From positions 68,746,001-68,810,000 of the forward strand of contig CM065817.1 of NCBI GenBank assembly GCA_033398695.1: a DNA stretch of 64,000 nt, written 5' to 3'. Below the pieces are notes generated by a model that saw nothing but the letters and a program-made list of their open reading frames with translations, did not search any database and was not told the origin of the DNA. Within the stretch, counting starts at the first letter, position 1. Each line of letters begins with the position of its first letter. The position numbers were made by a program, and so were the translations under genes. This DNA comes from Orobanche coerulescens (lineage: Eukaryota; Streptophyta; Magnoliopsida; Lamiales; Orobanchaceae). Below are positions 9,380 to 59,152 of this stretch, piece by piece.

Positions 9380-10244
9380 TGTTGCGATAATTCTTGAACG
9401 CAAGTGTACGTTATCGTATACAAGTAATAAAGTGATGAGTGAGTATCGTTCCCACGAGAACTGGATCACTAACTACCGATTTTTATGTATTCTAGTTTTA
9501 TTCGAACAATCGAATTTTGGGTTTGCAATTAATTACTAAAAGAAATTAATAAAATACTAGACAGTAAAAATGATCGCTTGAAGAAAGAGAATCAAATGAT
9601 AAATAAGTCTAGGATTCTGAATCCACCTAGGTTTATCCGAATTTACTCTCGATTATCTGAAGTTAATGATTTTCCCAATTTATTGAAGGCGAAGATTTAT
9701 AATATACTCTACCGCCTCTCCCGAGGTCAATAGATTTTTCTAAAGGTGAATTAATTCGTCAATAGACAAAAAGCATAAAATCTCCAAAAGGCCACGTAGT
9801 TTCTATGAGTATATTCCTATCTCACAGAATAAAACGGTCCTCAACAATAGTTCCTCACCAACTCTCCTCTCCGGATTCGAATTGAATGATTAAAACAATA
9901 CAACTATTGTCCAGATAATTGAAAGCATTAAACACGATTGGGAAAACTCAACAAAAAGGGAATTTAAATAGATAATCTCAAGCAAATCCGTCAAAACGTA
10001 GGTTTCGTCAAAATCCTAGATTAGGGTTTTAGCCTGACATGCTAATTAATGAAAATACAGAATAAATGAATAAAAGCATAAAAATCAAACGCAGATGAAG
10101 CTCGGATTCCTCCGTTCTTCTGGCTTCCGCCCTCTGCTCTTGAAGTCTTCTGCTTATCTTCCTCTTCTGCCGTTTCCTCCAAGATTCTCCGATTCCAAGA
10201 TTTGATCAAAAGATCCAATGATCATTAATTAGGGTCTTAAACCC

Positions 10245-10254
10245 TTATTTATAG
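10245..10254 (-). promoter_or_regulatory. LTR TATA box of the Athila-like element
   Basis: The minus strand reads GCTATAAATAAGG. It lies ~95 bp downstream (element orientation) of the nearest palindrome of the 10350-10506 array, which makes the array part of U3. Confidence 0.55.
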
Positions 10255-10349
10255 CTCTGCACAGTCTCCAAATCGCGTCCGTGTGAGTAGGTCGAGAACT
10301 GGCTTCAAAACGGCCCAAATCCACGCGGAGCATACCAAAACCGCTAAGT

Positions 10350-10506
10350 GTGCCGCGGCACATGGCCTTCAGCTGGACGCCTGGGCGCCTTTTAATTCAT
10401 CTGTGCCGCGGCTCACCTGGACTGTGCCGCGGCACAAAGTACAGTCTACTTTGTGCCCGCTGGTTGTCTTCCTGTGCAGCGGCCCACTTGCCTTGTGCCG
10501 CGGCTC
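10350..10506. repeat. Array of GTGCCGCGGCAC palindromes in the Athila LTR U3
   Basis: Perfect 12-bp palindromes at 10350-10361 and 10424-10435. Near copies at 10403-10414 (GTGCCGCGGCTC), 10474-10485 (GTGCAGCGGCCC) and 10495-10506 (GTGCCGCGGCTC). The spacers differ in sequence and length (9-40 bp), though AAAGTACAGT follows one copy as it does in the second array at 12575-12863. Confidence 0.9.
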
Positions 10507-11252
10507 ACGGCCAAAATTCGCCGTTTTCACCCGTTTCACCTCGTTTTAGCTTCCTGACTCCAATCTCCTGACAAACATACAAAATTAAGGCATTAAAAGC
10601 TTATTTAAGCAAATCTACTCTCCAAAATAATACAAAATAATGATAAATAAGCGTATAAAAATACGCCTAACAAATACCCCCAAACTTAAGCCTTTGCTTG
10701 TCCTCAAGCAGAAAGAATTAATTTCAACAAAAGAGTGTCGTGAATAATCGTGCAACTCATAGTGCTCAACCTAATCAATACTATCCTGAAATTCTCTCTG
10801 AAAAATACGAGTATCGTAATGGCGAGCTACACTCAGAACACTGATTCTACAAAGTAACCAAGTTCAGTCCTAATTACTCGTTCATGAAGAAAATCCAGCT
10901 CAAAGATTAACAAATGTGAATCAAATCGACCGTCAATATGAAAGGTTAAAATAAACGAGCTAAAGTCGCCCCGTTCCACAGTCTGATGGCAAAATTTTCA
11001 CGAGTTTCATAAAAATAATCCCCGGACAGTATTCCCTTATATATATATGCTCAAGAAATTGATTCGAGTTGACCACTAGGTTCGGATTTCGGGATGTTTC
11101 ATCGGGATAATCCTAGGGTGGAACTTCCATTCTCATGTATTGGGAAACCGTTTGACGTAAAAGACACTCATGGGGCACATGGATGCTTCTAGTTACTAAG
11201 TTCCCCTCCACAGCGGAGAAACAACTCGAATAGCTAATTCCCGCATGTCCGA

Positions 11253-11432
11253 ATCAAGGTCGCTGTTTTACGCGAGAGTAAAAAACAACGGGTCACGCGA
11301 GTACCCCTGGTTACTAGGCTTCCCGTCTTCGGCACATGTGAAATTTCTAAATCACTAGTCTAATCAGGGTCGTCGTTTTATGTGAGAGTAAACAACGGGT
11401 CACGTGAATACCCCCGGTTACTAGACTTCCCA
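11253..11432. repeat. Imperfect ~70-bp direct repeat in the Athila 3' domain
   Basis: GGTCGCTGTTTTACGCGAG at 11260 recurs as GGTCGTCGTTTTATGTGAG near 11368. Both copies continue with AACGGGTCACG, GGTTACTAG and CTTCCC. The period is about 113 bp and the copies differ mostly by C/T and A/G changes at CpG. No ORF spans it. Confidence 0.75.
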
Positions 11433-12560
11433 TCATAGAACAAAAATATCTCGACTTTTGGGAAAAACTGACCGACTCTAAACTCAATCTCAGTGCCAAC
11501 ACGACTTATGTAACTGGACGACTAGCTAACCGAAAAATGTAACCAAATGTATCGACGGTGATTTTAAAACACGTATGTATCCTCTCTTATCTGCCAAGAC
11601 CTCTACAATCACGAAAAAAAATTTCGGACCTAAATGAAAACTTAGCAAAAACAGAAATCACTGACTACAACCCGACTAAAACTCGACCGTTTCTTCAGAG
11701 AGAAAAACAGTGTCGTAACATCAGTATTACACAAATAGAAGCACGAAAAATTCACGAATAGAGTAAAATCAAGACAAGCAAGGCTAACGACAAAAATAAC
11801 GCAAAGTAATAAAAAGTGCAACAAAATTAGTACAGCAATGAATGTAGCAACAGAAAGTAAACCCCCCCAAACTTAGGACGTACATTGACCTCAATGGACA
11901 AAATATAATACGCAATAGAATAAGAAGGTCAAGTACTCCCCTCCAGTCCTCTCACGAGCTGGTGCCGGCATCATCCAGTGAGCTTGTACGCTTCTCGACT
12001 ACATCATGCGGAGCGTGAATAAATGAGCTTGCATCATCAAAGAGGAAGTTAAGTACGAGCTCTCAAGTTTAACATGATGTGAGGGTTGGGGACAATGTAA
12101 TTCGATAAAATGATTCGTTGCATACAATTTGAAAATGCTTGGCTTACCAATTTTTCATTGCAGCAATTTATCAAACACTTGGTATGCACAAGTTAAAATG
12201 AAGAACAAGAATTTTGATGGTTAACTCCAAATCCCAAAAATAATACACAGATAATAGCCATGAATAACGACAACTATCATCACCAATTCGTTCATAATTA
12301 CCAATTCCATCACAATCAAATACCAAATTCCCCATATTCCAACTCCATTTTAGATAAAACATTGAAGAACAACTAGCAATATATAACTTCAATTCTTTTC
12401 AAATCAAGTATCACTTATGATTAAGAAATCAAGAATTACCTGAAGAATTTGAGAAGGAGACTAAGAGAAGGGTATCGACTGACCTCATTGTGCGAAGGAA
12501 GGAAGTAAGGAAGGGACCTTGTGCTGGCCGGTCGACTGTATGAAGCATACCTGGGCATTC

Positions 12561-12568
12561 TTATATTG
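12561..12568 (-). promoter_or_regulatory. TATA-like box next to the second palindrome array
   Basis: The minus strand reads GCAATATAAGAATG. It lies only ~8 bp beyond the last palindrome of the 12575-12863 array in element orientation. About 90 bp further on the minus strand comes an ATG (CACAATGAGGTC) and then a donor-like CAG/GTAATTC. This could be a subgenomic promoter of a lost 3' gene; that is inference. Confidence 0.35.
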
Positions 12569-12574: not shown

Positions 12575-12863
12575 GGGCCGCGGCACAACATAAGTGAACC
12601 GCGGCCCAAGGTACAGTCGGCCTGGGACTCTTTGTAATACCGCCGGATGCTGCGGCTCAGTGTAGGCGTGCCGCGGCTCATTTGCCCCGTGCCGCGGCAC
12701 AGAGTACAGTTTCCTGGGCGTTTCTTGAACATTTGGTGTGCCGTGGCTCAGGGAATGTGTGCCGCGGCTCAGTAAGATCGTGCCGCGGCACAGTGTACAG
12801 TTTGTTTGGCCATGTTTCCTCAACTGGTGCATGCCGCGGCTCACTTTTATTGTGCCGCGGCCC
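12575..12863. repeat. Second array of GTGCCGCGGCAC palindromes, after Athila pol
   Basis: Ten copies: 12575, 12596, about 12648, 12669, 12689 (perfect), 12738, 12759, 12780 (perfect), 12831 and 12852. Several are followed by an AGAGTACAGTTT-like tail. The word is the same as in the LTR array 2 kb away, but the flanks are not an LTR copy. Confidence 0.9.
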
Positions 12864-13069: not shown

Positions 13070-16000
13070 TCATCCGGCGGTGGATAAGACGACACTCGTT
13101 TTCTGCGTGTCTATTGGATTTCCCAAGTATGCCTTCGACCATTGTCCATTAACTTTGAATTTTCGGTCATCTTTTTGTACTTCTACCGCACCATGTGGGA
13201 ACACTTGAACTACGGTGAACGGTCCCGACCATCGTGAATGCAATTTCCCGGGAAATAACTTTAAGCGAGAATTAAATAGCAACACCTCTTGTCCCGGGAC
13301 AAACTCTCTATGCGTGATGTGCTTATCATGCCAAGTCTTTGTCCGCTCCTTATAAAGTTTCGCATTTTCGTATGAGTCGTGGCGAATTTATTCCAACTCG
13401 TTCAGCTGCAAACAACGCTTTTCGCCAGAAGATTTCAGATCAAAGTTTAGTTTCTTTATCGCCCAGTAAGCACGATGTTCCATCTCTACAGGTAAATGGC
13501 AACCTTTCCCATAAACCAATCTGTAGGGCGACATTCCGATAGGTGTTTTATACGCAGTCCGGTACGCCCAAAGTGCATCATCGAGTTTAAATGACCAATC
13601 TTTTCGAGACGAGCTGACCGTCTTTTCTAGGATCCACTTCAGCTCTCGATTTGATATCTCGACGTGACCGCTCATCTGAGGATGGTATGCTGTAGCAACA
13701 CGATGAGTGACTCCATATTTTCTCAAAACCGCATCAAGAAATTTGTTGTCGAAGTATGACCCACCATCACTGATAATAGCACGTGGAGTCCCAAAACGTG
13801 TGAAAATATATTGTTTTATAAACTTGATTACGACATTGGACCCATTCGTAGGTAGTGCCACCGCTTCAACCCATTTTGAGACATAATCTACGGCCACCAA
13901 AATATAGAGATTCTTATTTGATGGAGGAAATGGACCCATGAAGTCGATCCCCCATACATCGAACAATTCAACTTCAAGAATGGTGTTCAGCGGCACTTCG
14001 TGCCGTCTTGAGATGTTTCCCGTCCGTTGACACCGATCACACGTGGACACAAAGGAGTGAGCATCCTTGAATAAGGACGGCCAATAGAACCCCGATTGTA
14101 AGACCTTCGCCGCTGTTCTATTTCCACTAAAATGCCCACCGCAGGGTGATGCATGGCAATGGTTTAGCACACTGTGGATTTCCTCATCCGGAATACATCT
14201 ACGAATGATTTGATCGGGGCATCTCTTGAAAAGAAAAGGATCGTCCCACAAATAATACTTAGCGTCCGAGATTAGCTTCTTCTTTTGATGGCGTGAGAGG
14301 TCGTTCGGAATTGTTTTACTTGCCAAGTAGTTCACTAGATAAGCATACCAAGGCACGTGTTTTGAATCCAACTTGTAGAGCTGCTCGTCGGGGAAGGTTT
14401 CCAAGATTTGTGGCTGACTTTCTCCCTTCTCGAGGGGATTATCTAATCGTGAAAGGTGATCAGCTATAACATTTTCAGTACCTTTCTTGTCCCGAATCTC
14501 CAAGTTGAATTCTTGAAGGAGTAGCACCCACCGAATCAACCTTGGTTTGGCATCCTTCTTCTCCAAAAGGTATTTTATTGCTGAATGGTCGGTCCACATT
14601 ATCACTTTCGTTCCCAGTAGATACGCTCGGAATTTATCAAATGCAAAGATCACCGCCGACAATTCCTTCTCCGTTGTGGCATAATTTCTTTGGGCGTCAT
14701 CGAGTGTTCGGCTCGCATAGTATATGACATGGAACACCTTCCCTCATCTCTGCCCCAAAACAGCCCCAATGGCAAAGTCGCTTGCATCACACATTAACTC
14801 GAACGGAAGGTCCCAGTCCGGAGCGACTATCACCGGTGCCGTGCTTAGAGCTTTCTTCAATAAATCGAAACTTTATTTACACGATTCGTCAAAAGTAAAT
14901 GGAACATCCTTCATGAGTAGATTGCACAGCGGCTTCATGATCTTCGAAAAATCCTTAATAAATCAGCGATAGAAACCGGCATGTCCCAAAAAACTTCTAA
15001 TCCCCTTGACCGAAGTGGGCGGAGGCATCTTCTCAATTGTTTCAATTTTCGCTCGGTCGACTTCAATTCCATGTGAGGATGTTCGATGGCCAAGCACAAT
15101 GCCCTCCTGCACCATAAAATGACATTTCTCCCAGTTCAAGACCAAATTTGTCTCTTCGCATCTTCTCAAGACTTTCTGCAATTTTTTCAAACAAATGTCA
15201 AACGAATCTCCAAAAACAGAAAAATCATCCATAAAAATCTCAATACACTGCTCTACCATGTCAGAAAAAATAGCCATCATACACCGTTGAAAAGTAGCCG
15301 GCGCATTACATAATCCAAAAGGCATGCGCCTATAAGCGAAAATGCCGTAAGGACATGTAAACGTCATTTTCTCTTGGTCTTCGGGGGCTATGTAAATCTG
15401 ATTATACCCCGAGTAACCATCGAGAAAGCAATAGAAATCGTGTCCGGCTAATCTATCTAACATCTGATCAATAAAAGGTAAGGGGAAATGATCTTTTGTA
15501 GTGGCCTTATTTAATTTCCTATAATCTATGCACATACGCCACCCCGTGACAATCCTAGTGGGAATTAATTCATTATTATCATTTTGAACAACCGTTATCC
15601 CACCCTTTTTCGACACAACTTGGACCGGACTTACCCACTTGCTATCAGAAATCAGAAAGATCATACCTGCGTCGAGGAGTTTTAAAACCTCGACTTTTAC
15701 CACCTCCTTCATGTTTGGATTCAACCGGCGTTGATGCTCCACGGATGGTTTGTAGTCTTCCTCCATCAAAATCTTGTGCATGCAAATTGACAGGCTGATC
15801 CCCTTAATATCCGCAATAGACCATCCAAGAGCAGATTTGTACTCCCTCAAAACTCTCAATAATTTCGCCTCTTGATCCCCTGCTAAAGTGGACGAAAGAA
15901 TAACTGGAAGGGAGTCGTCGGGCCCTAAAAATGCATATTTTAAATGAGGTGGCAGCTTCTTGAGTTCCAACTTTGGAGGTTTTTCGATCGATGAGACTGG

Positions 16001-16502
16001 TCGAGTTAGTGAACTTCCGAGCTCCTCGAATGGTTGACGAATGAAAATTTGCGGGGAAGCATCCATGTGGCGTACGTAGGCTGCATGCTCTGCATTTAGT
16101 TCGGAAATAGCCCCAATCAAAACGGACTCCAAAGGGTCGGGTGGATAATTCTCTCGAAAGGTTCTACTCACGCACGAGTCAATGACGTCAACTTGGAAAC
16201 AATTTTCAGCATCATTCGGATATTTTACGGATCGAAAGATATTGAACGTTACTTGCTCCTCTTGAACACGTAGAGTCAGCTTCCCCTTTTCCACATCGAT
16301 CAAAGTTCGGCCGGTCGCTAAGAATGGTCTTCCGAAGATAATTGGGATATCTTGATCTTCCTCCATGTCGAGCACAATAAAATCCGCTGGAAAGATAAAT
16401 TTGTCAACCTTTACCAACACGTCCTCTATTACTCCCCTCGGATATTTGATGGACCTATCGGCCAATTGTAAGGAGACCGTCGTCGGCTTGGCTTCCCCAA
16501 TA
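13070..16502 (-). pseudogene. Athila-like pol (protease end, RT, RNase H, integrase), four in-frame stops
   Basis: A single minus-strand frame runs from 16502 to the TGA at 13070. In order: the C-terminal half of the protease (TVSLQLADRSIKYPRG, GRPFLATGRTLIDV); RT with MCIDYRKLNKATTKDHFPLP and the FMDD active site near 15225; RNase H with [20 protein letters not shown] and [11 protein letters not shown]; integrase HHCC finger ([11 protein letters not shown] ... CDRCQ) and core ([29 protein letters not shown]); and the tail LKLFPGKLHSRWSGPFTV. Stops are TGA 14963-14965, TAA 14873-14875, TGA 14744-14746 and TAA 13388-13390; there is no frameshift. Both TGA codons stand where Arg is expected and fit CGA-to-TGA decay. 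Upstream of 16502 the frame enters unrelated sequence, so the protease DTG and gag are absent. Confidence 0.93.
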
Positions 16503-17345
16503 GAATGATAAGATAAACAAAGAAGTCCACTCTCCAATGGATGGATTTGTTACAGTGGTGAAACTGCTACGAAGGAAGATCAAACGATCGTACTATAAAT
16601 ATCTGAAGATATGAATTGAGCAAAGTACGACGCGAACAATACTTTCAAGCAAACATAGCAATCAAGGCAATCAAATCTATCAAAGCTATCAACGCAATCT
16701 ATAGCATCGTAAAGAGCAAAGCATTCAGGATCATATTCTGAAAAGCTCTTTGTTGGAGAAGACAAACATTCTTGTCTCAAAAATTGAGTACGAGGTACTA
16801 ACGTAAATGAGATTTTCAGAAGTTTCGCGAATGATAAGGCACCCAAGGATTCTTGATTGGAAGGTGATAGACAGCTCGAGAGTTATTGAGGCATCCTTGG
16901 ATTTTCGATCAAGAGGTGTTAGGCAGTCAAATGGAGTTGCAACAGCCACCAGATTTCACTGGTTGGAACCTGTTGTAACTGGTTTAATCATTGTAATGTT
17001 TATCACTGGTTGAAAGTTATAGTAGATTCATCTCCAACTGGTTTGGAGAAAAATGGACTAGTAGAGGATTACCCCACCTCTGAAACCACTATAAGTGCTG
17101 TGTGATTTACTGCTTTGAACATCATACTTAACTGTTGCATTCATATTTACTGTTCCATTAGATAGTTATCTGCAGTGAACATTAGTTACCTGCTATCGTC
17201 ATCACTTGTGTCTTCCACATTACCTGTTTGCGGACGACATAAGTCATCTGTACCTAATCACAGCTGAGTAACTCATCTTAGATTCAGAAAGAGTTTAATA
17301 AGTCTATTCACACCCCTCCTCTAGACTTATTCCTGACGACTTGTG
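16503..17345 (+). repeat. Copia LTR fragment (+), copy 1
   Basis: A TATA-like ACTATAAATATC near 16592 and an ending rich in copia-like U5 features (AGTTTAATAAGTC, TTCACACCCCTCCTCTAGAC near 17300-17327) suggest the R/U5 part of a + strand copia LTR without its U3. No clear tRNA primer site follows, so the right limit is approximate. The 5' side is cut at the duplication edge. Short ORFs here are not credible. Confidence 0.45.
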
Positions 17346-18699: not shown

Positions 18700-21055
18700 C
18701 TATTGCGGTAATGAAGTTCGGAGAACCGTGATTATGGGTGGTCCATTGGGACTATAGATATTAATGAAAATCGATATTAGTACAAAATTTTGATGTCTTA
18801 ATAGTTAGGCTAATAGAAAATTTTTATGCATTTTGCTAGATTTATGACGTTTGAACTGGAAGGGCAGTAGGTTATGCATCTCATGGATTTCGAGTTTGAT
18901 AATAATAACTGTAAAGTGTGGCGTGTAGTCTGAGATAGTCGTTCTGGGCTTAACAGCTATATAATTTATAAGTTGTTATGAAAAATATATATTTGGTGAT
19001 TTTAAATGAAATATGTGAGTTCACTATTTTAAAATGATATTTAGTAATTTTAACAAAATAGATATTTTCGTTCTTGATCATACGACATTTTGATAAAAGA
19101 AAATTATTATTATATTTTGATCAAGAAATTTTAACTACTTATAAAATCTAGTATTTTTATTTCTAAAATTTGAGTACGATTCACATATTTTAGTACAGGA
19201 TATAAACGTTCTTTGTTTTCGAGAAAGAACGGTGGGTGTTCTGAGATGAAAGAAATTTTTGATATATTTTGTAAAATGGTGATTTGGAATTCCCGATAAA
19301 AGAAGAGGTAATGCTTTTAATCTTCAAGTAAAGAAAAAAATGTTGTAGTAATTTTATTCAAAAAACGAGACTCTTAAATTTTGAACGAAGGAATAAAGAG
19401 TTGATTATTGTGCAAAGAACATATTTTAGTATTTCAGAAGGAAGATTGATCTTGAAAGATTTATTGATGGCGTACATTTCAATAATAGAAGCTTAAAGTG
19501 TAGTATTTTATGTCACGGATAAATCTCGATATTCTATAGTTTTGAATAAAGGTGAGAGTTCTAAAATTTGAAAATGTAATGTGTTGATTTTAATCGACAA
19601 ATAGAACTCATTTGATATTCCAAATATATGTTGCAAAATGGTATATTGATGAGAAAAAAAACTCAAGTCAGAGAGTCTTGTTACGAGTTAAAAATGTATT
19701 TTAGTCAGTTCGAGCAAGGGCCATGCACAATGAAGTTTAGTAATGCAACACCCCCAAGTTATTCAGGGTATATTACAGTGCCGTGAGCCCCGCCGTGGGA
19801 CCCACAAGGCTATTCACACGCGGAACCATGAACTTTAACCGATACGGTCTAAGTATAGTCCAATGGAGGACAATAAAATTGGCACTCAAGACAATATCCA
19901 ATAAGACCGAATACAATACATCAAGAATCAATCCCAAGGCAACACAGGCCAAAACATCAAGAAAGCCAGAAGCAGTACTGGAGTACTCATGACCATTCCA
20001 AGTAAAACATCACTGAATGGATGAAAGACAAAGTATAACCAGTGACAAAACACAGCATCACATTTGCCCATCATCTTCATGCCAACCCAGTACATTCCTA
20101 TCCGCTCTCATGGATCCTGAAATACATGAAAGGTATTTACCCCAAAAGGGGTTAGCTGTCGAATATCTAATACAAGTATATCGAATATGAAATACAATAC
20201 TTCTTGATAATAAAGTAAATGTAATCATCATTCCATCAGGCTCAAGACTAGTATTCCGGAATAACTAAATCTCATACACTTCATCAATACATACGTGATT
20301 AACCGTGGAACCGCACCAAAGGCAACGGAACCCTCACATGCCCTGTCAGACCCTCCCGGAGTGGTTAACCCAAAATATTCACAGAACCGTACCAAAGGCA
20401 ATGGAACCCTCAGAGGACCCATCGGTCCATCCCAGAATGAATATATACAATCATACAATTCATATACCCTACTTCAAAGTTGAGAACGTACAATCATAAA
20501 CATATACTTGCCTTCGAGACATCGAGAATTGGAAGGAAAGGAATACAAGTTCCATAGGTCCAAGAACGCACTTCCGGCACCTAAACGATTCGTAAGGAAC
20601 ACGATAATTAATAATCCATACTCAAATCACACAAAGAAACTCATGAAACACACCTATGATTCACAGCACTCCAAGGATAAACACCTAGAGGTTTGGAAAT
20701 CATCCAAACCCTCTCTAGTCCGAACAAAGTACATAAACATCCATATATTCGTAGGTGAAACGTGGGTACGGGGTAGATACATCATAATATCAAAGATTCA
20801 AGCTCCAAAATGGATAAATCAGATGAATCTAAGAAAATCCCCAAAAATTCCCCAAACTAGGGTTCTAAGGAATTTACCTTGATTTGTAAGGTAGAAGCGG
20901 ATTAGAAGTTGTATAATCTTTGTTATTCAACCCAAGATGATGATAGCTGATGAAAGATTGCCCCCAAATCGCCCTCCGGATCGCCCTCTCATGCTCTCTC
21001 GTCGGAAATGAGTAAAAGGGATGAAAAATGACGAAGAACGGGGTTTACCCCCTCT

Positions 21056-21062
21056 TATATAC
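21056..21062 (-). promoter_or_regulatory. Gypsy C LTR TATA box, copy 1
   Basis: The minus strand reads GCAGTATATAAGAGGGGG. The nearest palindrome of the array begins about 10 bp upstream in element orientation. Confidence 0.6.
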
Positions 21063-21070
21063 TGCGCCTG

Positions 21071-21360
21071 ATTAACGCGCGCTAAAACACAAGGCTAGTG
21101 TGCACTAATGGGGTCACCCAGTAGTCCAGTAGGTTCTGACCTGCGTCGTTAGCGTGCACTACATCTGGCACTAGTGCGCACTATACAACACCGATAGCGT
21201 GCGTTAGCTCACGCCTAGCATGCACTAACTGCTAGTCCAGAGAGCAAAATTCGGCTACTGCCTCTGCCAGACTCAACCCATTAGCACGCGCTACTGGCGA
21301 AGCTAGCGCAGGCTACTCGAAATGAATAACGTACGTTAGCTCACGCCTAGCGTGCGCTAT
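21071..21360. repeat. Array of TAGCGYGCGCTA palindromes in gypsy C U3, copy 1
   Basis: About ten degenerate copies, e.g. TTAACGCGCGCTAA (21072), CTAGTGTGCACTAA (21095), TTAGCGTGCACTA (about 21150), CTAGTGCGCACTA (about 21172), ATAGCGTGCGTTAG (about 21193), TTAGCACGCGCTA (about 21280) and CTAGCGTGCGCTA (21348). Spacers are unrelated. Copy 2 keeps more CpG, including a perfect 14-bp palindrome. Confidence 0.88.
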
Positions 21361-30893: not shown

Positions 30894-30932
<39 letters not shown>

Positions 30933-38700: not shown

Positions 38701-40474
38701 TGTAACACCCCCAAGTTATTCAGGGTATATTACAGCGCCGTGAGCCCCGCCGTGGGACCCACAAGGCTATTCACATGCAGAACCATGAACTTTGACCGAT
38801 ACGGTCTAAGTATAGTCCAATGGAGGACAATAAAATTGGCACTCAAGACAATATCCAATAAGACCGAATACAATACATCAAGAATCAATCCCAAGGCAAC
38901 ACAGGCCAAAACATCAAGAAATCCAGAAGCAGTACTGGAGTACTCATGACCATTCCAAGTAAAACATCACTGAATGGATGAAATACAAAGTATAACCAGT
39001 GACAAGACACAGCATCACATTTGCCCATCATCTTCATGCCGACCCGGTACATTCCTATCCGCTCTCATGGATCCTGAAATACATGAAAGGTATTTACCCC
39101 AAAAGGGGTTAGCTGTCGAATATCTAGTACAAGTATATCGAATATGAAATACAATACTTCTTGATAATAAAGTAAATGTAATCATCATTCCATCAGGCTC
39201 AAGACTAGTATTCCGGAATAACTAAATCTCATACACTTCATCAATACATACGTGATTAACCGTGGAACCGCACCAAAGGCAACGGAACCCTCACATGCCC
39301 TGTCAGACCCTCCCAGAGTGGTTAACCCAAAATATTCGCAGAACCACACCAAAGGCAACGGAACCCTCAGAGGACCCATCGGTCCGTCCCAGAGTGAATA
39401 TATACAATCAGACAATTCATATACCCTACTTCAAAGTCAAGAACGTACAATCATAAACATATACTTGCCTTCGAGACATCGAGAATTGGAAGAAAAGGAA
39501 TACAAGTTCCATAGGTCCAAGAACGCACTTCCGGCACCTAAACGATTTGTAAGGAACACGATAATTAATAATCCATACTCAAATCACACAAAGAAACTCA
39601 CGAAACACACCTACGATTCACAACACTCCAAGGATGAACACCTCGAGGTTTGGAAATCATCCAAACCCTCTCTAGTCCGAACAAAGTACATAAACATCCA
39701 TATATTCGTAGGTGAAACGTGGGTACGTGGAGATACATCATAATATCAAAGATTCAAGCTCCAAAATGGATAAATTGGATGAATCTAAGAAAATCCCCAA
39801 AAATTCCCCAAACTAGGGTTCTAAGGAATTTACCTTGATTTGGAAGGTAGAAGCGGATTAGAAGTTGTATAATCTTTGTTATTCAACCCAAGATGATGAT
39901 AGCTGATGAAAGATTGCCCCCAAATCGCCCCCCGGATCGCCCTCTCATGCTCTCTCGTCGGAAATGAGTAAAAGGGATGAAAAATGACGAAGAACGGGGT
40001 TTACCCCCTCTTATATACTGCGCCTGATTAGCGCGCGCTAAAACACAAGGCTAGCGTGCGCTAATGGGGTCACCCAGTAGTCCAGTACGTTCTGACCTGC
40101 GTCATTAGCGTGCGCTACATCTGTCACTAGTGCACACTATACAATGCCGATAGCGTGCGTTAGCTCATGCCTAGCGTGCACTAACTGCTAGTCTAGAGAG
40201 CAAAATTCGGCTACTGCCTCTGCCAGACTCAACCCATTAGCACGCGCTACTGGCGAAGCTAGCGCAGGCTACTCGAAACGAATAACGTACGTTAGCTCAC
40301 GCCTAGCGTGCGCTATCTACTCCATATAATATCATCGCCGCAAGGTCCATTCGATACGAACATGTTTCGAAGGATACGAAATTCTAGAATCAACAACATC
40401 TCGATAGGCGCTTACAAGCGCGATAAAAGCGAAAGGACGACAAGGTCAAAATCATGAAAAATATAGGTATTACA
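38701..40474 (-). repeat. Gypsy C 3' LTR, copy 2
   Basis: Starts TGTAACACCCCC and ends GGTATTACA on the + strand. The PPT follows at 40475-40486. The TATA (minus strand AGTATATAAGAG) is at about 40011-40017. Confidence 0.8.
40028..40316. repeat. Array of TAGCGYGCGCTA palindromes, copy 2
   Basis: Begins with the perfect palindrome TTAGCGCGCGCTAA (40028-40041), 11 bp upstream of the TATA, then CTAGCGTGCGCTAA (40051). It continues with about eight degenerate copies to 40316. This copy retains CpGs that have become TpG or CpA in copy 1. Confidence 0.9.
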
Positions 40475-49992: not shown

Positions 49993-51834
49993 GCATGTTG
50001 CCACTGCGATTCTAGGTTGAAGCGAAAAATACACAAAACCACTGTATCATCAAAAGGCACCACAACAAAACCGCATATGAGGTATAGAACAATAAAACCC
50101 CTATGGTTGCATATTCACATTATTAGTTGCAGCTGTTATGTTCTCAACAACGGGAAAAATCAGCTCAAGATCTTCGATGAGAAGTCTGATGAAGGAATAG
50201 TCGTCAGGTATTCATCTATTAGCAAGGAATATGAAAGAAAAAAATGGTCTAGTCATAAGAAATAAGTCTAGACTATTTGCCCACGATTACAGACAGGAAT
50301 AAGGCATAGTCAATGATGAAAACATTTGCCCGTGTAGCCACATTAGAAGCCATCACAATATTCCTAGCATTTACAGCTCACACGAACTTCATTGTATATC
50401 AAATGGACGTTAACAGTGCACTCATAAATGGTCACTACGCCATATATGGTCTTTACCAACACATGGGACAGGTGTTGCCACGTCAAATGTTGACTTATAT
50501 GGCTAAATTTAGAATAAATTCGATATAAGGCAACACTGTAATTTCATGTTGCAGTTGGTATCAAATAATGTTACCTTAAATATAATTAAACCTTCAATGC
50601 CAACACTTATGTGGGTGTTGCAGTAGATATGGCTGGAAAAATATACTGGAAGTACCGTATACTGTACTTATCGTACCAAAAAAATACCAAAAATACCGAG
50701 TTTTCGGTATACCATAATTTTCTGTATGGTATGATACCGTACCGTTTGATTTCAGCACGGAAACTATATGGAATATTTGATACCTCCGGTATACCATTGC
50801 TGTACTGAATTTCGGTATGTATCGAATTTTTCGATATATACCGATATCTCTGTATATTCACATACCATTATGTATTGATTTCCCGGTATATACCGGAATG
50901 CCGATATATTTTGCAATTTTTGATGCATATTTATAATTTTATAGGTTATAAATCTACTAAGTGTACACTTATTAAAAATACAAAATAGAATTTAAAACTT
51001 AGAATTGGAATTTAGAACTCAAGTACTCAACCCTAATTTCAGATTTCAGTTTCTGCCTCCTAACCCATCGCAAACCCAAACCATCAGCTGTGGGATGTCT
51101 TCACCGATCCGGACTCTGGCGCGCTGCTCTCGAGTCTCCTCGCGTTGCCTCGCAATTTGTCTCGTTGAGATCTCCTCGTGCTGCCTATTTTGTTCCGACT
51201 TCCGCTAGCCGCGTCCATATATGGAGGTTTTGGTAATACAAAAGACACAAAATCATTTAATGTTGGGTTTGTCAAGTTCCATATTGGGTAAATGAGATAT
51301 CAATTTCATAGGTGTATTGAGCATGTACGTTAATACTGTGGTGCCTGGTGCTGCCTTATCCATCATTCTTCTTTTTGTTAATAATTGTAGCTGTACAAAT
51401 TTTGCAGTGACAATAGTCTCCTTGTAGATGTTTTTATATTAATTAGCCTTGTCTCAATTGATATTGAACGATTGAATTTTGTTGCTTAAGGGAGATGCTT
51501 TTGAGAACTCTAATAATTATGGAAAAGAACTATCTTGGAAGAGCGGCGTCAATCCTTTTCTGTTATTTCAGTTGAAACACAGTGAATCACCGCTTCTCTC
51601 TTCTCGTTAAGAAGATGCTGATGAATTGGTTTATGTGGTAAATTAGTTTGAAGGTACTCCTATTCAATCTACGAGTCTTATGTGTTTGGGTTTTGGGAAG
51701 AATTGGAGCAACTTGAAGGACTAACGTTTCTGTTTTAGTACTTGTAATAATCATTTCTACATTAGAACCTTGCTTGAATATGCTTTAGATCATAACCTGT
51801 AGGTCACTAAGTATACAGGATATAGATTGGAAAT
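49993..51834. other. Copia F scrap, CACTA-like insert, GGTATACC-rich stretch and gene-free DNA, copy 2
   Basis: Second copy of 31063-32900. The copia RT motif is at 50313-50432, the insert at about 50433-50626, the GGTATACC-rich stretch at 50627-50920, and the rest is without genes. It ends with GAAAT (51830-51834). Confidence 0.6.
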
Positions 51835-52887
51835 TGTTTTAAACAACAAGCTGTACGGTTTTTAAATCTGAGTGCGTAGCGGAAGTCTTATTAAAGTGAG
51901 TTGCTGTAAATACAACAACTAGATATGAAGTGTATACTTAAAAATAATCACGAATATTAAAACAGTAAATGTAGAAGATAACTGACACGGTAATTAAAGT
52001 GGTTCGAGGTAAACCCCTCTACATCCACTGGTCCTCCACACAGGAGTGAAAATGTTTATTATAAATACTACGTACACAACTACGTATTTATAATCAAACC
52101 TAATCAATATATCGTTCACACAAATTGATATAATGATCTTAGCCTTCAACCGTTCACACAGATTGGTTTAAGCTATCACTTGACTGGCTTCTTCACACAC
52201 AGTTCCGAAGCTTCATCTCTTCAATGCAAGTCCGTCACACATAGTTCAGGAATAGCAAGGTTTCTCAGTCCACACAGGGCTGATGGGTTTTGTTCAAGGG
52301 TAGAACAATGATTGAACAACAGCTTTGACTTTCTGAGCTTTTAGCTGATGATGTGTTGTTCACAGTTTGAGCAATTGTATATCTCTTGTTTTAGAATAGC
52401 AGTATGCTTTGGGAGATATGTTTGCTCAGATGTATATGATGATAACTTCGTATTTTTCAAGTATATGTGATCTTCAAACTCTGGAGATATATATAGCCTT
52501 CTTTGAATATATCCGTTGAGATAGATCCGTTGAGCAGGATTCCGTCCCAACAGGATGATCTGTTTGAATAAAACACGATCCGGATTTTGCGTTAGATTGA
52601 AGATCTCTGATGGCTTGGTATTTAAATACTTTATCCTTTAGTATTTAAATATATCTTCTCAAATGGGACTTTGAATTTAGTGAATACCAAAGATTCCTTC
52701 TTGTCCTGTTTGGATACTGTATGGAATGATAGCTGTATTGTCAATTCGAGACAGCTTCCATACTTAGTCTTATGAGACTTCTTTGCTGTATGATTGATTC
52801 ACTGTATGCTGGGGCTACGAGAAGTCTTCCATACATGATGATACCTCTGATCAGATTTTCGTCTCAAAATTTGTCATTTTCTCAACA
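51835..52887 (-). repeat. Copia B 3' LTR (1053 bp)
   Basis: TGTTTTAAACAAC ... TTTTCTCAACA on the + strand, the same as 32901-33954. It has TATA, AATAAA and a GTGGAGGACCAGTGG U5 segment on the element strand. GAAAT at 51830-51834 is the likely target-site copy. The purine run adjacent to the right end is on the wrong strand for a PPT, so the start is tentative. Confidence 0.55.
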
Positions 52888-53024
52888 AGAGAGGAGAGCA
52901 CCTACGACATATCTTGAATTTTCTTGTCGTGGGCTCGAAGCTGGGAACCGGTTTCAATCATAGCAGATGCTGTCTTGGCCTCGGACACGTGTAGCTTTGA
53001 TTTTTATTCTCTCAGGATCTGCTC

Positions 53025-55379
53025 CTATTTTTCTTGCAATTGGCTCAGGGCCTGCTTGAAGACGTGTGGCACGATTGTGAAGGCTTCTTCCACTCGGGAG
53101 ACTTCATGCCTTAGACCTGTCATCTCTTCAACGGAAGATGTGTGTAGCCAATCAAGAGCTTTTTCCACAAAATACAGGGCGTTGACGGCGTCCTGGATGA
53201 AAACAGTTTGGAGGCCAAGAGCATGTAATCGCTCTTTCCTTGTGGCAGTCCTAGGAGAGTCTGGCTGGGCGAAATCGTCAACTCCGTTCCACCTTCTCAA
53301 GTTCACATTAGGACGTGAATTGAGTTGGATGTCCTCAGGTATTATACCGTCGTCGGATTCCAAAGAGGTTGAGGGTGCGGGAGTATCAGATTCGGTCTCA
53401 GCGACAGGTGGTGCTTCATCCTCCTGTGCTGGGATGGGTTCTGAAGACATGGATACAGGAGGGAATGATTCCTCCTGCTGTCTCTCAGCTTCCGCCTGCT
53501 CCGGCAGAGGGACTGATTCCTCATGCGGGATGGCGTTGGATTCTTCTTCGGCTTGGGTGGCGACAGTTTCGGGTGCCTGTTGCGAAACATATTGTTCCTC
53601 CACGACATGAGGGACTGAATCCTCGTTGTCGGGAACATTGTCTTGTTGATGGGGAGGTGATTGGTGATAACTCGAAGTTCCTGCGCCCATCTCAAATTCA
53701 GATTCCTGGCGACTTATTCTTAGACCATCCTGAAGGGCGTCGTCATCATCGTCTGAGTTGGGATCTGATTTTGGACTTTTGGGAGATTCCACGAACTTAG
53801 CTTTTCCTTTCTTTCGTGCTTCGGCTTTTTCAAACAGATGGCTCTCAAATAGCTCTTTAACACAAAGGTTGTCCCATTGGATCAGGACAGCAACATCTTG
53901 AGCGTCCGTCAATTCCAAAACAAATCTTTCTTCATTGCTCCATTCGCTGCAGTTGTATAGGTTGTCGTACGGAGCAAGTCTGTAGTTTTTCCATTGGACA
54001 AATCGTTCATAAGCCTCTTCAATTTGCACAGAAAGTAGGGTTTTGTTAATAATTGTGTCCGGGGAGGGGCTGCGTACAGCGCCTGACTCCGCTGTAGGCA
54101 TGGGTTCCTCTACAGGTGTGTGATCCTGTATCGGAGAGGGATCCCTTACAGGGGTTGGTACCCTGATGGGAGATGGATCCTTAACGGGTGTGGAATCCCG
54201 TACAGGAGAAGTAGCTTTTGGCTCCAAAGTGGTAGCCGACTCGCCAGAGTCTTGTATGTTGGCAGATGTCTGAGCATCCGTCATAGCCGCCAAAGGCTCG
54301 GGATATACTGTATCGACAGTAGTAGGCATCTCTTCCACAGGGGTTGGGCCCTGGGGGAGTTGTTCAGTGGGTTGTGCAACAGAAGGAGCGTCCTTGGAGG
54401 TTTCTGTAGACTTAACTTTTGAAAGCCTCCTTAGCTTCCTTTTCGGCTTCTCAACAGCAACTGGAGTTTTGCTGTGAGATCTTTTTCTCTTACTTGAAGT
54501 CTCCTCGCTCTAAGACTTCGAAGATATGTCCCTTGGGTCGGGAGAAAGGGGCAATTTCCGAACGTAAGGCCTGTTTGCAATAAGGGGTCCTTTCTTGAAG
54601 ACGGTGGGTCTGATGCTTCCCATATAAATGCGAGAAGTGATCTTCTTTGCTTTTTCATCTTGCGGAACACCGCATTTAGTCAGAATATAATTCAAAAGCA
54701 AACCAAAGGATTTCTTCTGCAAGGCAGGCTTAGAAACTTCTTCCTGCAACCGTTTGAGGATAATTTGACACCAATTGACCTTCTCACAGGTCATAATTGC
54801 AACCATCATCCTGAACCTAAGATTGGTGAACATCTCGAATGCACCTGTTCTGTTCTCAATAACACGACAATAGAAATCGTGTAAATAAACGAAAGGTAAA
54901 CAAAAGTTTTTCTTATGGCAAGAGGTGTGAACCGTTTCCACCGACGCTGAACCGGTGAACAAGCCATAGTAAGCGGTTAACAGTTCTTGGGACCCAAAGG
55001 TCTCAAGATCTTCCATTGACAGACCATCAGCAGGAAGCCTGTAGAGATTCTGGAGAAGGTCCTGGTCAACACGGATCTCGACTCCACAAATGACGTCTGT
55101 GATGTCAACAACATGTCCTCCCTGAGCCAGTGAAAGGAAACGAACAGCAGCATTAAGGTAGAACTCCTCAACCATATGAACATTAAATCGTTCAGCAGAG
55201 TGGCTGCCAAGGCGATATAGGCCTTGTTGACGAATCCTAGTGATGACGTACTCCATCGATTCGACGTCATCCACTTTGGAACGAACACATTCAAGCACGA
55301 TAGATCTAGAGAAGATCCATCCGTCGATGATGTTGGAGGATTTCTTGAGAGAGATGGAAGAGGTCTGAGAAGATGCCAT
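53025..55379 (-). pseudogene. Copia B 3' ORF, 785 codons with one in-frame TAG
   Basis: ATG at 55379, TAG at 54510-54512 (codon 290), end at 53025. The frame is otherwise unbroken, so this is nearly intact. Codons 1-285 form a folded-looking domain that aligns to the N-terminal domain of the copia A 3' ORF. Directly after the TAG comes a basic, bipartite-NLS-like stretch (KRKRSHSK ... KRKLRR). Then follow an acidic and Ser/Pro-rich region with six Ser/Thr-Pro hexapeptides (18-bp DNA repeats at about 54125-54235), a helical block (EEAYERFVQWKNYRLAPYDN), Glu/Gln-rich linkers and a C-terminal helical block. There is no signal peptide or membrane segment, so a nuclear or nucleic-acid role seems likelier than an envelope one. 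Function is unknown. TATAAAAG is 134 bp upstream of the ATG. Confidence 0.75.
54121..54236. repeat. 18-bp coding minisatellite (Ser/Thr-Pro hexapeptides)
   Basis: Six units of 18 bp encode [ST]-P-[VI]-x-[DV]-[PSH]-type hexapeptides in the copia B 3' ORF. The same units occupy the end of block copy 1 (about 35187-35302). The block breakpoint (35305 / 54239) falls at the edge of this tandem repeat. Confidence 0.8.
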
Positions 55380-55512
55380 TGACGATTCTTGAAGAAAAGT
55401 TAAAAAGGATTCAAAGAGTATGCAGTAAATACAAAAAGGTTTGTAGGCTGTATGCATAAGAACTCTTACAATATGCAGAAAGCGTAAAGAGTCTCAAATG
55501 GAATTTATAGTC

Positions 55513-55568
55513 CTTTTATAGTTGGCGGCGAAGAAGGGTTTTCAGAGACTAAACGGTCAGATTTAAGG
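55513..55568 (-). promoter_or_regulatory. Putative internal promoter of the copia B 3' ORF
   Basis: The minus strand reads CCAACTATAAAAGGACTATAAATT (TATAAAAG at + 55513-55520), ~134 bp upstream of the ATG at 55379. CCTTAAAT (+ 55561-55568) and ACCGTT motifs lie upstream, as in copia A. A pyrimidine-rich leader follows. Confidence 0.5.
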
Positions 55569-55940
55569 GATGAGAACCGTTGTTTGAAATGAACGATCAC
55601 GATAGACTGAGTGTAACCGGTACAACTTATCCATCTATTTTAAAATAGGAGCGGGTCCCACTTCTGACTTATTAAATTACCCTTAATGCCTGAAACAGCG
55701 GTGTACAATTAATAAAAATTTGAAACATCGCGGCTTTGAAGATACCAATGTCCATATGTCGTGTAAAGCATTTAATGCAAACGATTTGTAATAATAACAT
55801 GGCAAGTGGACATAAAATATTTTAAAATAAATAACATGATAATTGATTTCCCATTGTAGGTGCTGTATCCGCGAAAATCCAACGTTTCTCCTTAAAAGGT
55901 ACATATGGGTTTCAATTCGATACAACAGCTTTTGGATTAA

Positions 55941-56108
55941 TGCTGTATTCTTGGGTCGTACTGTATTCCCCCTTAATTATTGCACACGTCAGCTGTAGGA
56001 TAATTCATATTGCTTGGTTCCTACAGTGCGGTTCTAATAGACTGAGTGTACAAATAACTAATGGTGGATACTGTATTCTTGGGTCTTACAGCATTCCCCC
56101 TTAATTAC
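55941..56108 (-). repeat. Duplicated PPT-like segment between RNase H and 3' ORF of copia B
   Basis: On the minus strand TTAAGGGGGAATGCTGTAAG and a close copy with ACAGTACGACC occur at + 56071-56108 and 55941-55979, about 130 bp apart. AAGGGGGAA resembles the PPT that normally precedes a copia 3' LTR, yet here a 3' ORF follows. It may be an internal PPT or a fossil of the original 3' end. Confidence 0.6.
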
Positions 56109-58231
56109 TGAGTAAAAGCATTAAAAACTTACAGGGAGTTAGGCTGTAGCAATCCCAATTCATGTCGAAGCAGTAAAATCTTGCTGTGTCGAGAGGTTTG
56201 GTGAAGATGTTGGCTAACTGGATATCTGTATGAACTTTTTCCAGCCGAACATCCTTGTTCTCAACATGATTTCTAATGAAATGATGCATCATGTGAATAT
56301 GCTTGGTGCGCGAGTGCAATACAGGGTTGTGGGTGATAGCAATTGCACTCGTGCTATCGCACATAATCTGCGTCTCTTTGGCTTCAATTCTATAGTCTGA
56401 CAGCTGTTGTTGCATCCAAAGGATCTGCATACAGCAACTACCAGCAGCATAGTATTCTGATTCAGCTGTTGAAAACAAGTTTGCCAATTGTTTCTTGCTA
56501 AACCAAGACACCAGTCTAGGTCCAACAAAGTGACAAGTTCCACTTGTACTCTTCCTATCTAGCTTGCAACCTCTGAGATCCGAGTCGCTGTAGCCAACTA
56601 AATCGAATCCGCCTTCTTTAGGATGCCACAGTCCTACATCGACTATTCCTTTGACGTATTTCAGGATTCTTTTAGCTGTTGCGAAGTGTGATTCTTTAGG
56701 TGATACTTGATATCACGCACACACTCCTACAGCAAACTGGATATCGGGCCTGCTACCCGTTAGGTACAAGAGTGAGACAATAAGCTTCCTGTAGAGTGAT
56801 TGATCAACCGGCTTTCCAGCTTCATCAGCACTAATTTGCACGGAAGTGCTCATGGGGGTTGACGATGATTTGGAAGTATTCATTCCAAATTTGTTGAGAA
56901 GCTCCTTGCTGTATTTTTCCTGGTTGATGAAAATCCCTGTAGGCAACTGCTTTACCTTCAAACCTAGGAAATAACTAAGTTCTCCCATCATACTCATTTC
57001 AAATTTACTTTGCATGAGATGAGAGAACCTTTGACATAAAGCAAGGTTAGTTGAACCAAATATTATATCGTCTATATAGATTTGAACGAAAGTCATCACC
57101 TTCCTATATTTTGAACAAGGTCTTGTCCACAACACCTTTCTCGAATCCATTATCAGTTAGATACTGGGACAGTCTCATACCATGCTCTAGGGGCTTGCTT
57201 AAGTCCATACAATGCTTTCCTTAGCCTGTATACTAGGTCTTCGCCTTCTGGAATGACAAACCCTGGTGGTTGTTCAACATATACTTCCTCAGCAATGTCT
57301 CCTTTCAGGAATGCACTTTTGACGTCCATTTGATATACAATGAAGCTTTTATGGGCGGCAAAGGCTAAAAATATCCTAATGGCTTTTAGTCTGGCTACAG
57401 GGGCAAATGTCTCATCGTAGTCTATGCCTTCTTCCTGTCTGTATCCTTGGGCGACTAGTCGGGATTTATTCCTGATAATGAGTCCATTTCTATTTTTCTT
57501 GTTTCTAAATACCCATTTGGTTCCAATTACTGATTGATGCGTAGGTCTGGGTACAAGATACCATACGTTGTTTTTTTCGAAACCGTTAAGCTCTTGTTCC
57601 ATAGATGTGATCCAATGAGAGTCATTGAGAGCTTCTTTGGTAGAAACAGGTTTGGATTGGGCTAAGAATACAGCAATGGTGCACATATTAAGTCTTCTAA
57701 GCTCGGATAGAGATTTCTATTCAAGAAATGGAGATATATTTGACTCGGGGTCTTCTTGCGCACATAGTACATTTCCTTGTGTACTCTGTATTCTCCTACG
57801 GGTAGAAAAACCAGCATCAATGTTTCCAATGATCATATCTTGTGGGTGATCTCTCAACCATCTTCTGTCGGGTTCTAATTCAGGGTCCCGTACTGTATCT
57901 TGAGTTGTTGTAGTTTTAGCTTCAGCTTGTACATCATCAGCTTCATCTACATCAGTTCTTACATCTGCGGGGTTGATTTCTAGTTCAACGATAGGTTCGA
58001 TAGGAGTTGGTGGATCTATGATGGAAAGTTGTTGGATGTCCTGAGAAAGGTCTTCTACTCCTGTAGGATCATGGTGAGGTTCATCGAACACTACATGAAC
58101 TGATTCCTCAATTGTTAGCTTCCTTTTATTGAAGATCTTGTAAGCTTTGCTAACAGAGGAATATCCTACAAATATCCCTTCATACGATTTCTCATCGAAG
58201 GTTCTAAGCTGATCCTTATAGTTGATCAAAA
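56101..58231 (-). pseudogene. Copia B pol (integrase end, RT, RNase H)
   Basis: The minus strand begins in mid-integrase at the gypsy D insertion (YKDQLRTFDEKSYEGIFVGYS). The RT follows with [42 protein letters not shown] and the IYIDDIIFG active site (about 57055). RNase H comes next, with AESEYYAAGSCC, CDSTSAIAITHN and KHIHMMHHFIRNH. It is broken by TAG 57717-57719, a one-base frameshift near 57160, a stop near 57110 and TGA 56713-56715 (a CGA-to-TGA type). The RT and RNase H are close relatives of copia A. Confidence 0.9.
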
Positions 58232-58629
58232 TGTAATACCTGCATCTAAAAATGTGAAAGTACGAAACTAACGGTGTTTTGTTGTTACATACCTCGTATG
58301 CTGTTTTGTTGTGATGCTTGTTGATGATACATCAGTTTTGTGTGTAGCACACTGTATTGGTGGCTTCGCCCCACAAACGCTGTGGCAATTTGTGTTCATC
58401 ATTGGCATTTTGTAACCGTGCATCAGTTACCGATCGTCATTCATCTCCGTTTGTGGATCAAGACGAGAGTATCATCATTATCATCGTGAATGGTAGTCTT
58501 ATGATGGAAGTATCAGCTATCGCGTGTTATTAGACTTAATTACATTCATAAGAGTATTATATGTCGGATCATTCACCGTTTGTAGCGAGTTAATGGAGTT
58601 GTCGCATTTTTGTCATTTCCAGCAACGAG

Positions 58630-59134
58630 TTACGGCCGTAACAAATAATACATTACGGCCGTAACATGCATTCGTTGGCTTAAGGTTGTTTAGCCGAAGA
58701 CGAGATACGGCCGTAAGGTAGGCAGGCTACAGCCATAAGATATGTTCGTGGGTTGCAGGAAATGTCGGACGAGGAGGGGTTACAGCCGTAAGGGTTGCGG
58801 CATACGGCCATAAGGCTTGGCTGGTTACGGCCATACGTGTCAAGCAGGGTGCCCAGGCAGTTTTGACAAAGGCTTCATACGCCCGTATGTTTGGCTGGTT
58901 ACGGCCGTATCGGTTGAGTTACGCCCGTAAGGTGTGCGGGTACGGCCGTATGGCTGTCGGCAGGTGTTTGGATGAGGGCGAGTTACGCCCGTAAGACAGG
59001 TGCGGGTACGGCCGTATGACTGACGGCAGATTCTGGACGAAGCCGAGTTATGGCCGTACGAGATGGCTGGTTACGGCTGTAAGGCCGTTGACCCGGGATG
59101 TTACGGCCGTAAGTAGGCCGAGTTACGGCCATAA
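58630..59134. repeat. Array of 17 TTACGGCCGTAA palindromes in gypsy D U3
   Basis: Perfect 12-bp palindromes at 58630, 58653 and 59101. One- or two-base variants at 58705, 58727, 58780, 58801, 58825, 58877 (ATACGCCCGTAT), 58899, 58919, 58940, 58983, 59006, 59048, 59071 and 59123. Spacers are unrelated and 9-40 bp long. The array ends 10 bp before the TATA. Confidence 0.95.
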
Positions 59135-59144
59135 CGTTCGGCAG

Positions 59145-59152
59145 TTTATAAG
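59145..59152 (+). promoter_or_regulatory. Gypsy D LTR TATA box
   Basis: CAGTTTATAAGGACC, 10 bp after the last palindrome. GAGAGAGAGAGCTTGAGG follows ~60 bp downstream, a pyrimidine/purine stretch typical of a transcript leader. Confidence 0.6.

What the first reader, a model, noticed from the sequence alone, without database searches (positions are those of the whole stretch)
9380..59152. Different retrotransposons share one layout: an array of CpG-centred palindromes just upstream of TATA, each element with its own palindrome word
Seen directly: gypsy D has 17 copies of TTACGGCCGTAA (58630-59134). The Athila-like element has 5 copies of GTGCCGCGGCAC in U3 (10350-10506) and 10 after pol (12575-12863). 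Gypsy C has about 10 copies of TAGCGYGCGCTA (21071-21360, 40028-40316). All are about 12 bp, two-fold symmetric, CpG-rich at the centre, repeated 5-17 times with unrelated spacers, and located on the upstream side of a TATA box in the element's own orientation. The last palindrome is 8-11 bp from the TATA in three of the four arrays. The words do not match each other, so this is not common descent of sequence but of arrangement, or convergence. Known parallel: VANDAL DNA transposons of Arabidopsis carry family-specific short repeated motifs bound by their own anti-silencing VANC proteins. Inference: these arrays may be a fast-changing recognition code for an element or host factor. Alternatively, since U3 is also the 3' end of the genomic RNA, they could be dimerisation or packaging signals.
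Basis: partly seen in the sequence, partly recalled or inferred. Interest (0 to 1): 0.88.

Follow-up and report, generated by a model that had tools for sequence, protein, structure and literature searches.

The report
Swappable palindrome arrays in LTR promoters
Many retrotransposon families in this large plant genome carry, next to their promoter, rows of short mirror-image DNA words that look like evenly spaced docking sites for a paired DNA-binding protein, and closely related elements carry different words, as if they switch which protein drives or protects them.

Summary
In 284 kb (window, 20 kb of flanks, 20 evenly spaced 10-kb pieces of one contig) there are 36 arrays with 325 sites; the same scan of reversed sequence gives 0. 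Genome-wide, GTGCCGCGGCAC occurs 101,126 times (reversed control 26) and TAACGTACGTTA 79,338 times (control 473).

Words are 12-bp dyads, read here as two 5-bp half-sites around 2 bp. The commonest pitch is 23 bp. Sites within an array are 0.86 identical, equal-length spacers only 0.33. This points to a dimeric protein binding double-stranded DNA beside the promoter.

'Each element its own word' fails: a few words are shared by unrelated LTRs, while LTRs 80-93% identical on both flanks can carry different words.

In two families (D, B) only gag-pol was seen, so a host factor is likelier than an element-encoded VANC-like protein. Palindromes upstream of TATA are already described for Ty1/copia Sireviruses (PMC2829016). 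What I did not find in print is the Ty3/gypsy version, the fixed pitch, and word switching on a constant backbone. The binder is unidentified.

The parts
58630..59134 (+). Array of TTACGGCCGTAA dyads in the U3 of the 5' LTR of Ty3/gypsy element D (15 sites with at most 2 mismatches)
59147..59151 (+). TATAA 12 bp after the last palindrome of D
58232..60795 (+). 5' LTR of D (start by the TGTAATACC motif, end by TGTTACA; homology to the 3' LTR outside the window starts at 58388)
   Evidence: 3' LTR in L006
61469..64000 (+). Internal gag-pol region of D, degenerate, running out of the window into L006; no other ORF of 90 aa or more on the plus strand
10350..10506 (-). Array of GTGCCGCGGCAC dyads in the 3' LTR of Athila-like element A (5 sites with at most 2 mismatches)
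10246..10253 (-). TATAAATA 96 bp after the LTR array of A
12575..12863 (-). Second GTGCCGCGGCAC array of A, between pol and the 3' LTR (8 sites with at most 2 mismatches)
12560..12565 (-). TATAAG 9 bp after the post-pol array of A; possible internal promoter (inferred)
13391..16549 (-). pol ORF pieces of A (RT, RNase H, integrase), cut off at the start of the tandem duplication
21073..21359 (-). Array of TAGCGYGCGCTA dyads of element C, first duplicate (10 sites with at most 2 mismatches)
21055..21061 (-). TATATAA 11 bp after the C array
40029..40315 (-). Array of TAGCGYGCGCTA dyads of element C, second duplicate (10 sites with at most 2 mismatches); not independent of the first

Best explanation
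Each array is a cooperative landing strip, on double-stranded DNA, for a dimeric sequence-specific protein. It sits in the U3 promoter of LTR retrotransposons (and after pol in A, upstream of a TATA). A two-fold symmetric 12-bp site binds one dimer; dimers sit at a fixed pitch of about two helical turns (23 bp for TWRCG words, 21 bp for GTGCC), so they can touch and then recruit transcription, or keep chromatin open, at the adjacent TATA. The words form a small vocabulary recognised by a few trans-acting factors, most likely host transcription factors that different families share. A family changes factor either by exchanging the U3 segment with another family or by rewriting all sites in place. 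Shown here: the arrays, their abundance, symmetry, pitch, site-against-spacer conservation, promoter position, and different words on one backbone. Inferred: protein binding, activation, and host origin of the factor.
For: Abundance against reversed controls: 101,126 vs 26, 79,338 vs 473, 11,289 pairs vs 0. 36 arrays in 284 kb, reversed sequence 0. Pitch: of 170 neighbour intervals in 21 non-redundant arrays 64 are exactly 23 bp; of the first 50 listed TAACGTACGTTA pairs allowed a gap of 1-31 bp, 40 have a gap of 11 and 47 a gap of 10-12. Sites within an array 0.857 identical (917 comparisons), equal-length spacers 0.334 (134), spacers between arrays 0.264, shuffled 0.254. In 134 aligned array pairs left after filters, site identity 0.813 against 0.680 outside, site higher in 128; a simple neutral simulation gave 0.773 against 0.717 at 30% divergence. 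After insertion the sites decay like other DNA: CpG transitions 20 of 200 in sites, 87 of 856 elsewhere, so conservation between families is not low mutability. Mirror positions co-vary: 2/11 symmetric in 204 of 261 (162.5 expected), 3/10 in 209 (132.6). Strict TATA near an array end 21 of 36 against 7.6 at random. Many-to-many relation of words and backbones. D and B show gag-pol only.
Against: No binding, expression or methylation data exist here. I could not match the words to a known plant factor; that rests on recall only, no motif library was at hand. Co-variation is biased, because sites were chosen by similarity to mostly symmetric words; positions 1/12 and 5/8 show no excess. Arrays compared may share ancestry, and weak alignments may be anchored on the sites. 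Long intervals are periodic, but the best period is 11.3, not 10.5 (at 10.5 R = 0.33). Some arrays lack a near TATA. The D array also folds strongly as RNA, so an RNA role is open. D and B copies are degenerate; an extra gene in intact relatives is not excluded.
Confidence: 0.6

Rival explanations
1. The words are targets of element-encoded anti-silencing proteins that coevolve with them, as VANC proteins do with VANDAL motifs. Binding removes methylation and opens the element; non-autonomous copies borrow the protein by carrying the word.
For: Dense arrays of a short word in non-coding DNA, words differing between related elements, concerted change of the sites of one array (L001 against L009), arrays in elements with no coding match (L013, L014, L025). 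VANC motifs are described as dense, rapidly diverging and evolving together (passages of PMC5735166 and PMC10398659).
Against: In D and B pol is followed by the polypurine tract and LTR, and no extra ORF was found. The same word class occurs in 4 to 8 of 13 LTR backbone components, whereas VANC motifs are largely private. VANC motifs are in one orientation with no mention of palindromes (0 occurrences).
Confidence: 0.17
2. The palindromes act in RNA: read-through transcripts fold into hairpins that feed small RNAs and silencing, or the U3 copy at the 3' end of genomic RNA helps dimerisation or packaging.
For: The D array folds much better than shuffles (z = -6.0, 0 of 100 shuffles). In maize Sireviruses palindrome clusters are small-RNA hotspots (passages of PMC5311732 and PMC10760457).
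Against: Self-complementary words fold for any reason. A fixed 23-bp pitch over near-random spacers and a place next to TATA are not needed for RNA pairing. Hairpin feeding of small RNAs would be costly to the element and would not keep sites conserved.
Confidence: 0.12
3. The arrays are by-products: a tandem repeat arose once, spread with the elements and by exchange between LTRs, and has no function.
For: Arrays contain longer internal repeats (58916-59016 and 58980-59081, 80%), and backbones are shared between families.
Against: Sites 0.86 against spacers 0.33 identical within arrays; site identity above surroundings in 128 of 134 pairs; equal decay of sites after insertion rules out low mutability.
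Confidence: 0.04

Closest known systems
Sirevirus repeated motifs (RM boxes), Ty1/copia; Bousios et al. 2010, PMC2829016 (sections 9 and 10 and passages read)
   Same: Family-specific short palindromes, 8-32 copies per element, clustered in the upstream half of the LTR shortly before a TATA, CpG-rich, with further copies upstream of the env-like gene in nine elements. Element A here also has arrays in the LTR and after pol.
   Different: Described for Sireviruses and reported absent from the other Ty1/copia elements compared; nearly all with a CGG-CCG core. Here the bearers are Ty3/gypsy (D, B, A), words have other cores, the pitch is fixed, and one LTR backbone carries several words. I saw no pitch or swapping analysis in the parts I read.
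Palindromes in maize Sirevirus LTR cis-regions (Bousios et al. 2016, Genome Research); not held, known here only through passages of PMC5311732 and PMC10760457
   Same: Palindrome clusters in the regulatory part of the LTR, evolving fast.
   Different: There linked to small-RNA hotspots and secondary structure; no small-RNA data here.
VANDAL transposons and VANC anti-silencing proteins; PMC5735166 and PMC10398659 (passages)
   Same: Dense short motifs in non-coding DNA, motif differs between related elements, copies change together.
   Different: DNA transposons, motif not described as palindromic, protein encoded by the element itself; none found in D or B.
Exchange of regulatory regions between retroelements: region-specific recombination of non-coding regulatory sequences in grass pararetroviruses (abstract of PMC5491270); LTR swapping in plants (listing only)
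   Same: A regulatory segment moves between partners while the rest stays.
   Different: Here related backbones end up with different words, rather than partners becoming alike.

Membership tests
Sirevirus RM-box elements | Bearer is a Ty1/copia Sirevirus | tested here: not met
   D has RT, RNase H, integrase and SH3_Tf2-1 in Ty3/gypsy order; B has RVT_1, RNase H, integrase zinc domain, weak chromodomain below cut-off; A is RVT_1/rve
Sirevirus RM-box elements | Repeated palindrome cluster upstream of TATA in the LTR | tested here: met
   with exceptions
Sirevirus RM-box elements | CGG-CCG core in the palindrome | tested here: not met
   TTACGGCCGTAA contains CGG-CCG, but TAACGTACGTTA and TAGCGCGCGCTA do not and GTGCCGCGGCAC has CCG-CGG
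Sirevirus RM-box elements | Extra copies upstream of an env-like gene | tested here: inconclusive
   A has an array and TATA after pol, but no ORF of 110 aa or more on the minus strand between 10,671 and 12,488
VANDAL/VANC-type anti-silencing | Element encodes the motif-binding protein | tested here: not met
   Only gag-pol seen in D and B; copies degenerate, other families not tested
VANDAL/VANC-type anti-silencing | Dense short motifs that differ between related elements and change together | tested here: met
VANDAL/VANC-type anti-silencing | Binding causes loss of DNA methylation | not testable with these tools
   no methylation or binding data
Ty3/gypsy chromovirus (D, B) | Chromodomain at the end of integrase | tested here: inconclusive
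   L009 piece: Chromo 20.5 bits, E 0.00045, cut-off 25.1

The most novel reading that the evidence does not exclude
LTR promoters in this plant use an exchangeable recognition code: a few 12-bp dyad words at fixed pitch, each read by a different trans-acting factor, and retrotransposon families repeatedly switch code by swapping or rewriting the whole array while the rest of the LTR stays the same, to follow or escape a fast-changing host or element factor.
Probability: 0.35. Interest if true: 0.85.

Novelty: new variant of a known kind. Interest (0 to 1): 0.64.

Why it matters
How retrotransposons win and keep promoter activity in large plant genomes is poorly known. A promoter grammar of about 10^5 identical sites per word makes the trans-acting factor findable by simple affinity methods. 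Word switching on a constant LTR backbone gives natural pairs that differ in little but the code, which would let one ask directly whether factor switching precedes bursts of amplification.

Tried and rejected
Single-word counts for TTACGGCCGTAA and TAGCGCGCGCTA, and a control palindrome of the same make-up (TATCGGCCGATA), did not complete, so word specificity against another palindrome genome-wide is untested; locally only five CpG words recur 7-17 times, the next most frequent non-TA word 3 times. Exact words in the literature: 18 papers hold one of six words, and none of the 18 titles concerns retrotransposons. A wider dyad scan (half-sites 5-6, centre 0-15) gave 33 palindromic rows, 8 outside known arrays, mirror control 3 rows; it missed the ACGGCGCAA word that I saw by eye in L025. 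Helical phasing: tested and kept only as weak, because the best period of long intervals is 11.3. Each element with its own word: rejected. Looser TATA count: 22 of 32 typed arrays have a TATA-like string at 9-22 bp, without a null; two of the misses (L009 near 8760, L024 near 6093) arise because my typed array end overlaps the TATA. One search dropped pairs with under 180 columns, under 60 outside or 36 site columns, or outside identity above 0.92 or below 0.6; the number dropped was not printed, and the 134 kept include two LTR pairs of one element. L001-L004 were picked by a TTACGG pair search and are left out of the counts, but are. Two papers searches failed on term format.
Full report
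What was checked. The window is C17:68746001-68810000 of an unnamed 3.65-Gb genome. It is a plant by its element content; of 111 homologues of the ORF at 54513-55493, 110 carry Orobanche names (minor, hederae, gracilis; 34-59% identity) and one has no name, so an Orobanchaceae host is likely but not shown. The counts with one and two mismatches are in the observation check. The two C arrays lie in an 18.8-kb tandem duplication at 97.2%.

How common. Beyond the window I read its 20 kb of flanks and 20 pieces of 10 kb at 10-Mb steps on one contig. These 284 kb hold 36 arrays of at least 4 sites (325 sites); reversed sequence holds none. Genome-wide counts with reversed controls: GTGCCGCGGCAC 101,126 vs 26; TAACGTACGTTA 79,338 vs 473; TTACGGCCGTAA pairs at 23 bp 11,289 vs 0; TAACGTACGTTA pairs with a gap of 1-31 bp 6,244 vs 0. 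TTACGGCCGTAA and TAGCGCGCGCTA alone, and a control palindrome, could not be counted because the machine stayed busy.

Anatomy of the word. Words read as two inverted 5-bp half-sites around 2 bp: TTACG-GC-CGTAA, TAACG-TA-CGTTA, TAGCG-CG-CGCTA, GTGCC-GC-GGCAC. Three share the half-site TWRCG. A fifth, longer dyad with arms ACGGCGCAA was seen by eye in L025. Among 261 TWRCG sites, mirror positions 2/11 and 3/10 co-vary (204 and 209 symmetric; 162.5 and 132.6 expected), positions 1/12 and 5/8 do not; the choice of reference words favours symmetry, so this is supporting evidence only.

Pitch and conservation. In 21 arrays with no blastn hit over 30% of their length to another kept array, 64 of 170 neighbour intervals are exactly 23 bp. 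GTGCC arrays favour 21 bp (13 of 37 intervals). In the first 50 listed TAACG pairs, 40 have an 11-bp gap. Intervals of 26 bp or more are periodic (max R in 9.5-11.5 not reached in 2000 jitters) but peak at 11.3 rather than 10.5, so exact helical phasing is not established. Within arrays, sites are 0.857 identical and 11-bp spacers 0.334, near the shuffled 0.254. Between homologous arrays, sites beat surroundings in 128 of 134 pairs (0.813 vs 0.680). In duplicate pairs that have decayed since insertion, site CpG transitions (20 of 200) equal those elsewhere (87 of 856; one of the six pairs had no sites). So the sites mutate normally and are kept only while elements propagate.

Place. A strict TATAWW lies within 60 bp of an array end in 21 of 36 cases, against a mean of 7.6 and a maximum of 16 in 1000 random placements. 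In the window the gaps are 9-12 bp for D, C and A after pol, and 96 bp for the A LTR. Exceptions: GTGCC arrays often have only a distant or poor TATA, and the B-type LTR and L009 each have a second array about 0.8 kb downstream.

Words and backbones. Joining arrays whose flanks match by at least 150 bp at 80%, 31 typed arrays form 13 components. One component of 17 carries four word classes, while TWRCG occurs in 7, TTACG-GC in 4 and GTGCC in 4 components (counted from its list, the ACGGCGCAA word in 1). Five pairs match on both flanks but differ in word: L008/L024 (87.9 and 87.4%), L012/L015 (83.9 and 93.4%), L009/L010 (84.9 and 87.4%), L001/L009 (85.4 and 87.0%), L002/L024 (87.8 and 80.5%). 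In L012/L015 and L008/L024 the differing segment spans the array, TATA and some flanking DNA, as an exchange would leave. In L001/L009 the array is partly alignable and the centre has changed from GC to YR at several sites, which looks like rewriting in place.

Who encodes the binder. In B, a tRNA-like primer site follows the LTR and gag starts about 230 bp later. In the B relative in L009 pol ends about 40 bp before the LTR, and in D the pol stop is followed by a G-rich tract and the LTR. D pieces match RT, RNase H, integrase and SH3_Tf2-1; the chromodomain match in L009 is below cut-off. No extra gene was found there, which favours a host factor; the copies are degenerate and other families were not examined.

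Known or new. Sirevirus RM boxes (PMC2829016) already show family-specific palindromes before TATA and before env. Passages in PMC10760457 note that LTR cis-regions are often arrays of sometimes palindromic repeats. Searches for a Ty3/gypsy, chromovirus or Orobanche version listed none by title or opening abstract; most subscription papers are not in that library. I therefore rate this a new variant of a known kind.

Reading. Cooperative binding by a dimeric factor, probably of the host, is the best-supported account (0.6). The bold reading, an exchangeable promoter code, is not excluded.

Noticed in passing
window 16503-35305 and 35457-54239: An 18.8-kb segment with nested elements is tandemly duplicated at 97.2% identity.
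   Followed up: partly
L-loci and window, about 90-240 bp downstream of arrays: AGGTAA, a splice-donor-like string, lies within 420 bp downstream of 16 of 31 arrays against 9.8% of random windows; the swapped segments end near it in L012/L015 and L008/L024. Arrays are partly related, so this is not independent.
   Followed up: partly
window 53028-58331 (minus); L023:2508-7755: A copia element with ORFs downstream of pol (weak PF20167 plus a disordered ORF), relatives in Orobanche. In L023 four TTCGAGCTCGAA copies lie between RNase H and the PF20167 ORF, as in Sireviruses upstream of env.
   Followed up: partly
L005:8065-8367 and L009:4261-4426: A second TWRCG array far downstream of the TATA in B-type LTRs, without its own TATA.
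   Followed up: no
L025:1215-1600 and 6570-6950: A longer dyad with arms ACGGCGCAA and a 13-bp centre before a TATA, on the same backbone as other words.
   Followed up: partly
L009 near 8760-8913: Some dyads are 11 bp (TTACGACGTAA), with a 1-bp centre.
   Followed up: no
window 62435-62767: Short tandem repeat of about 56 bp in the gag-pro region of D.
   Followed up: no
window 6263-8815 (plus): Three ORFs, one with a PF20167 match below cut-off, one rich in Lys/Arg.
   Followed up: no
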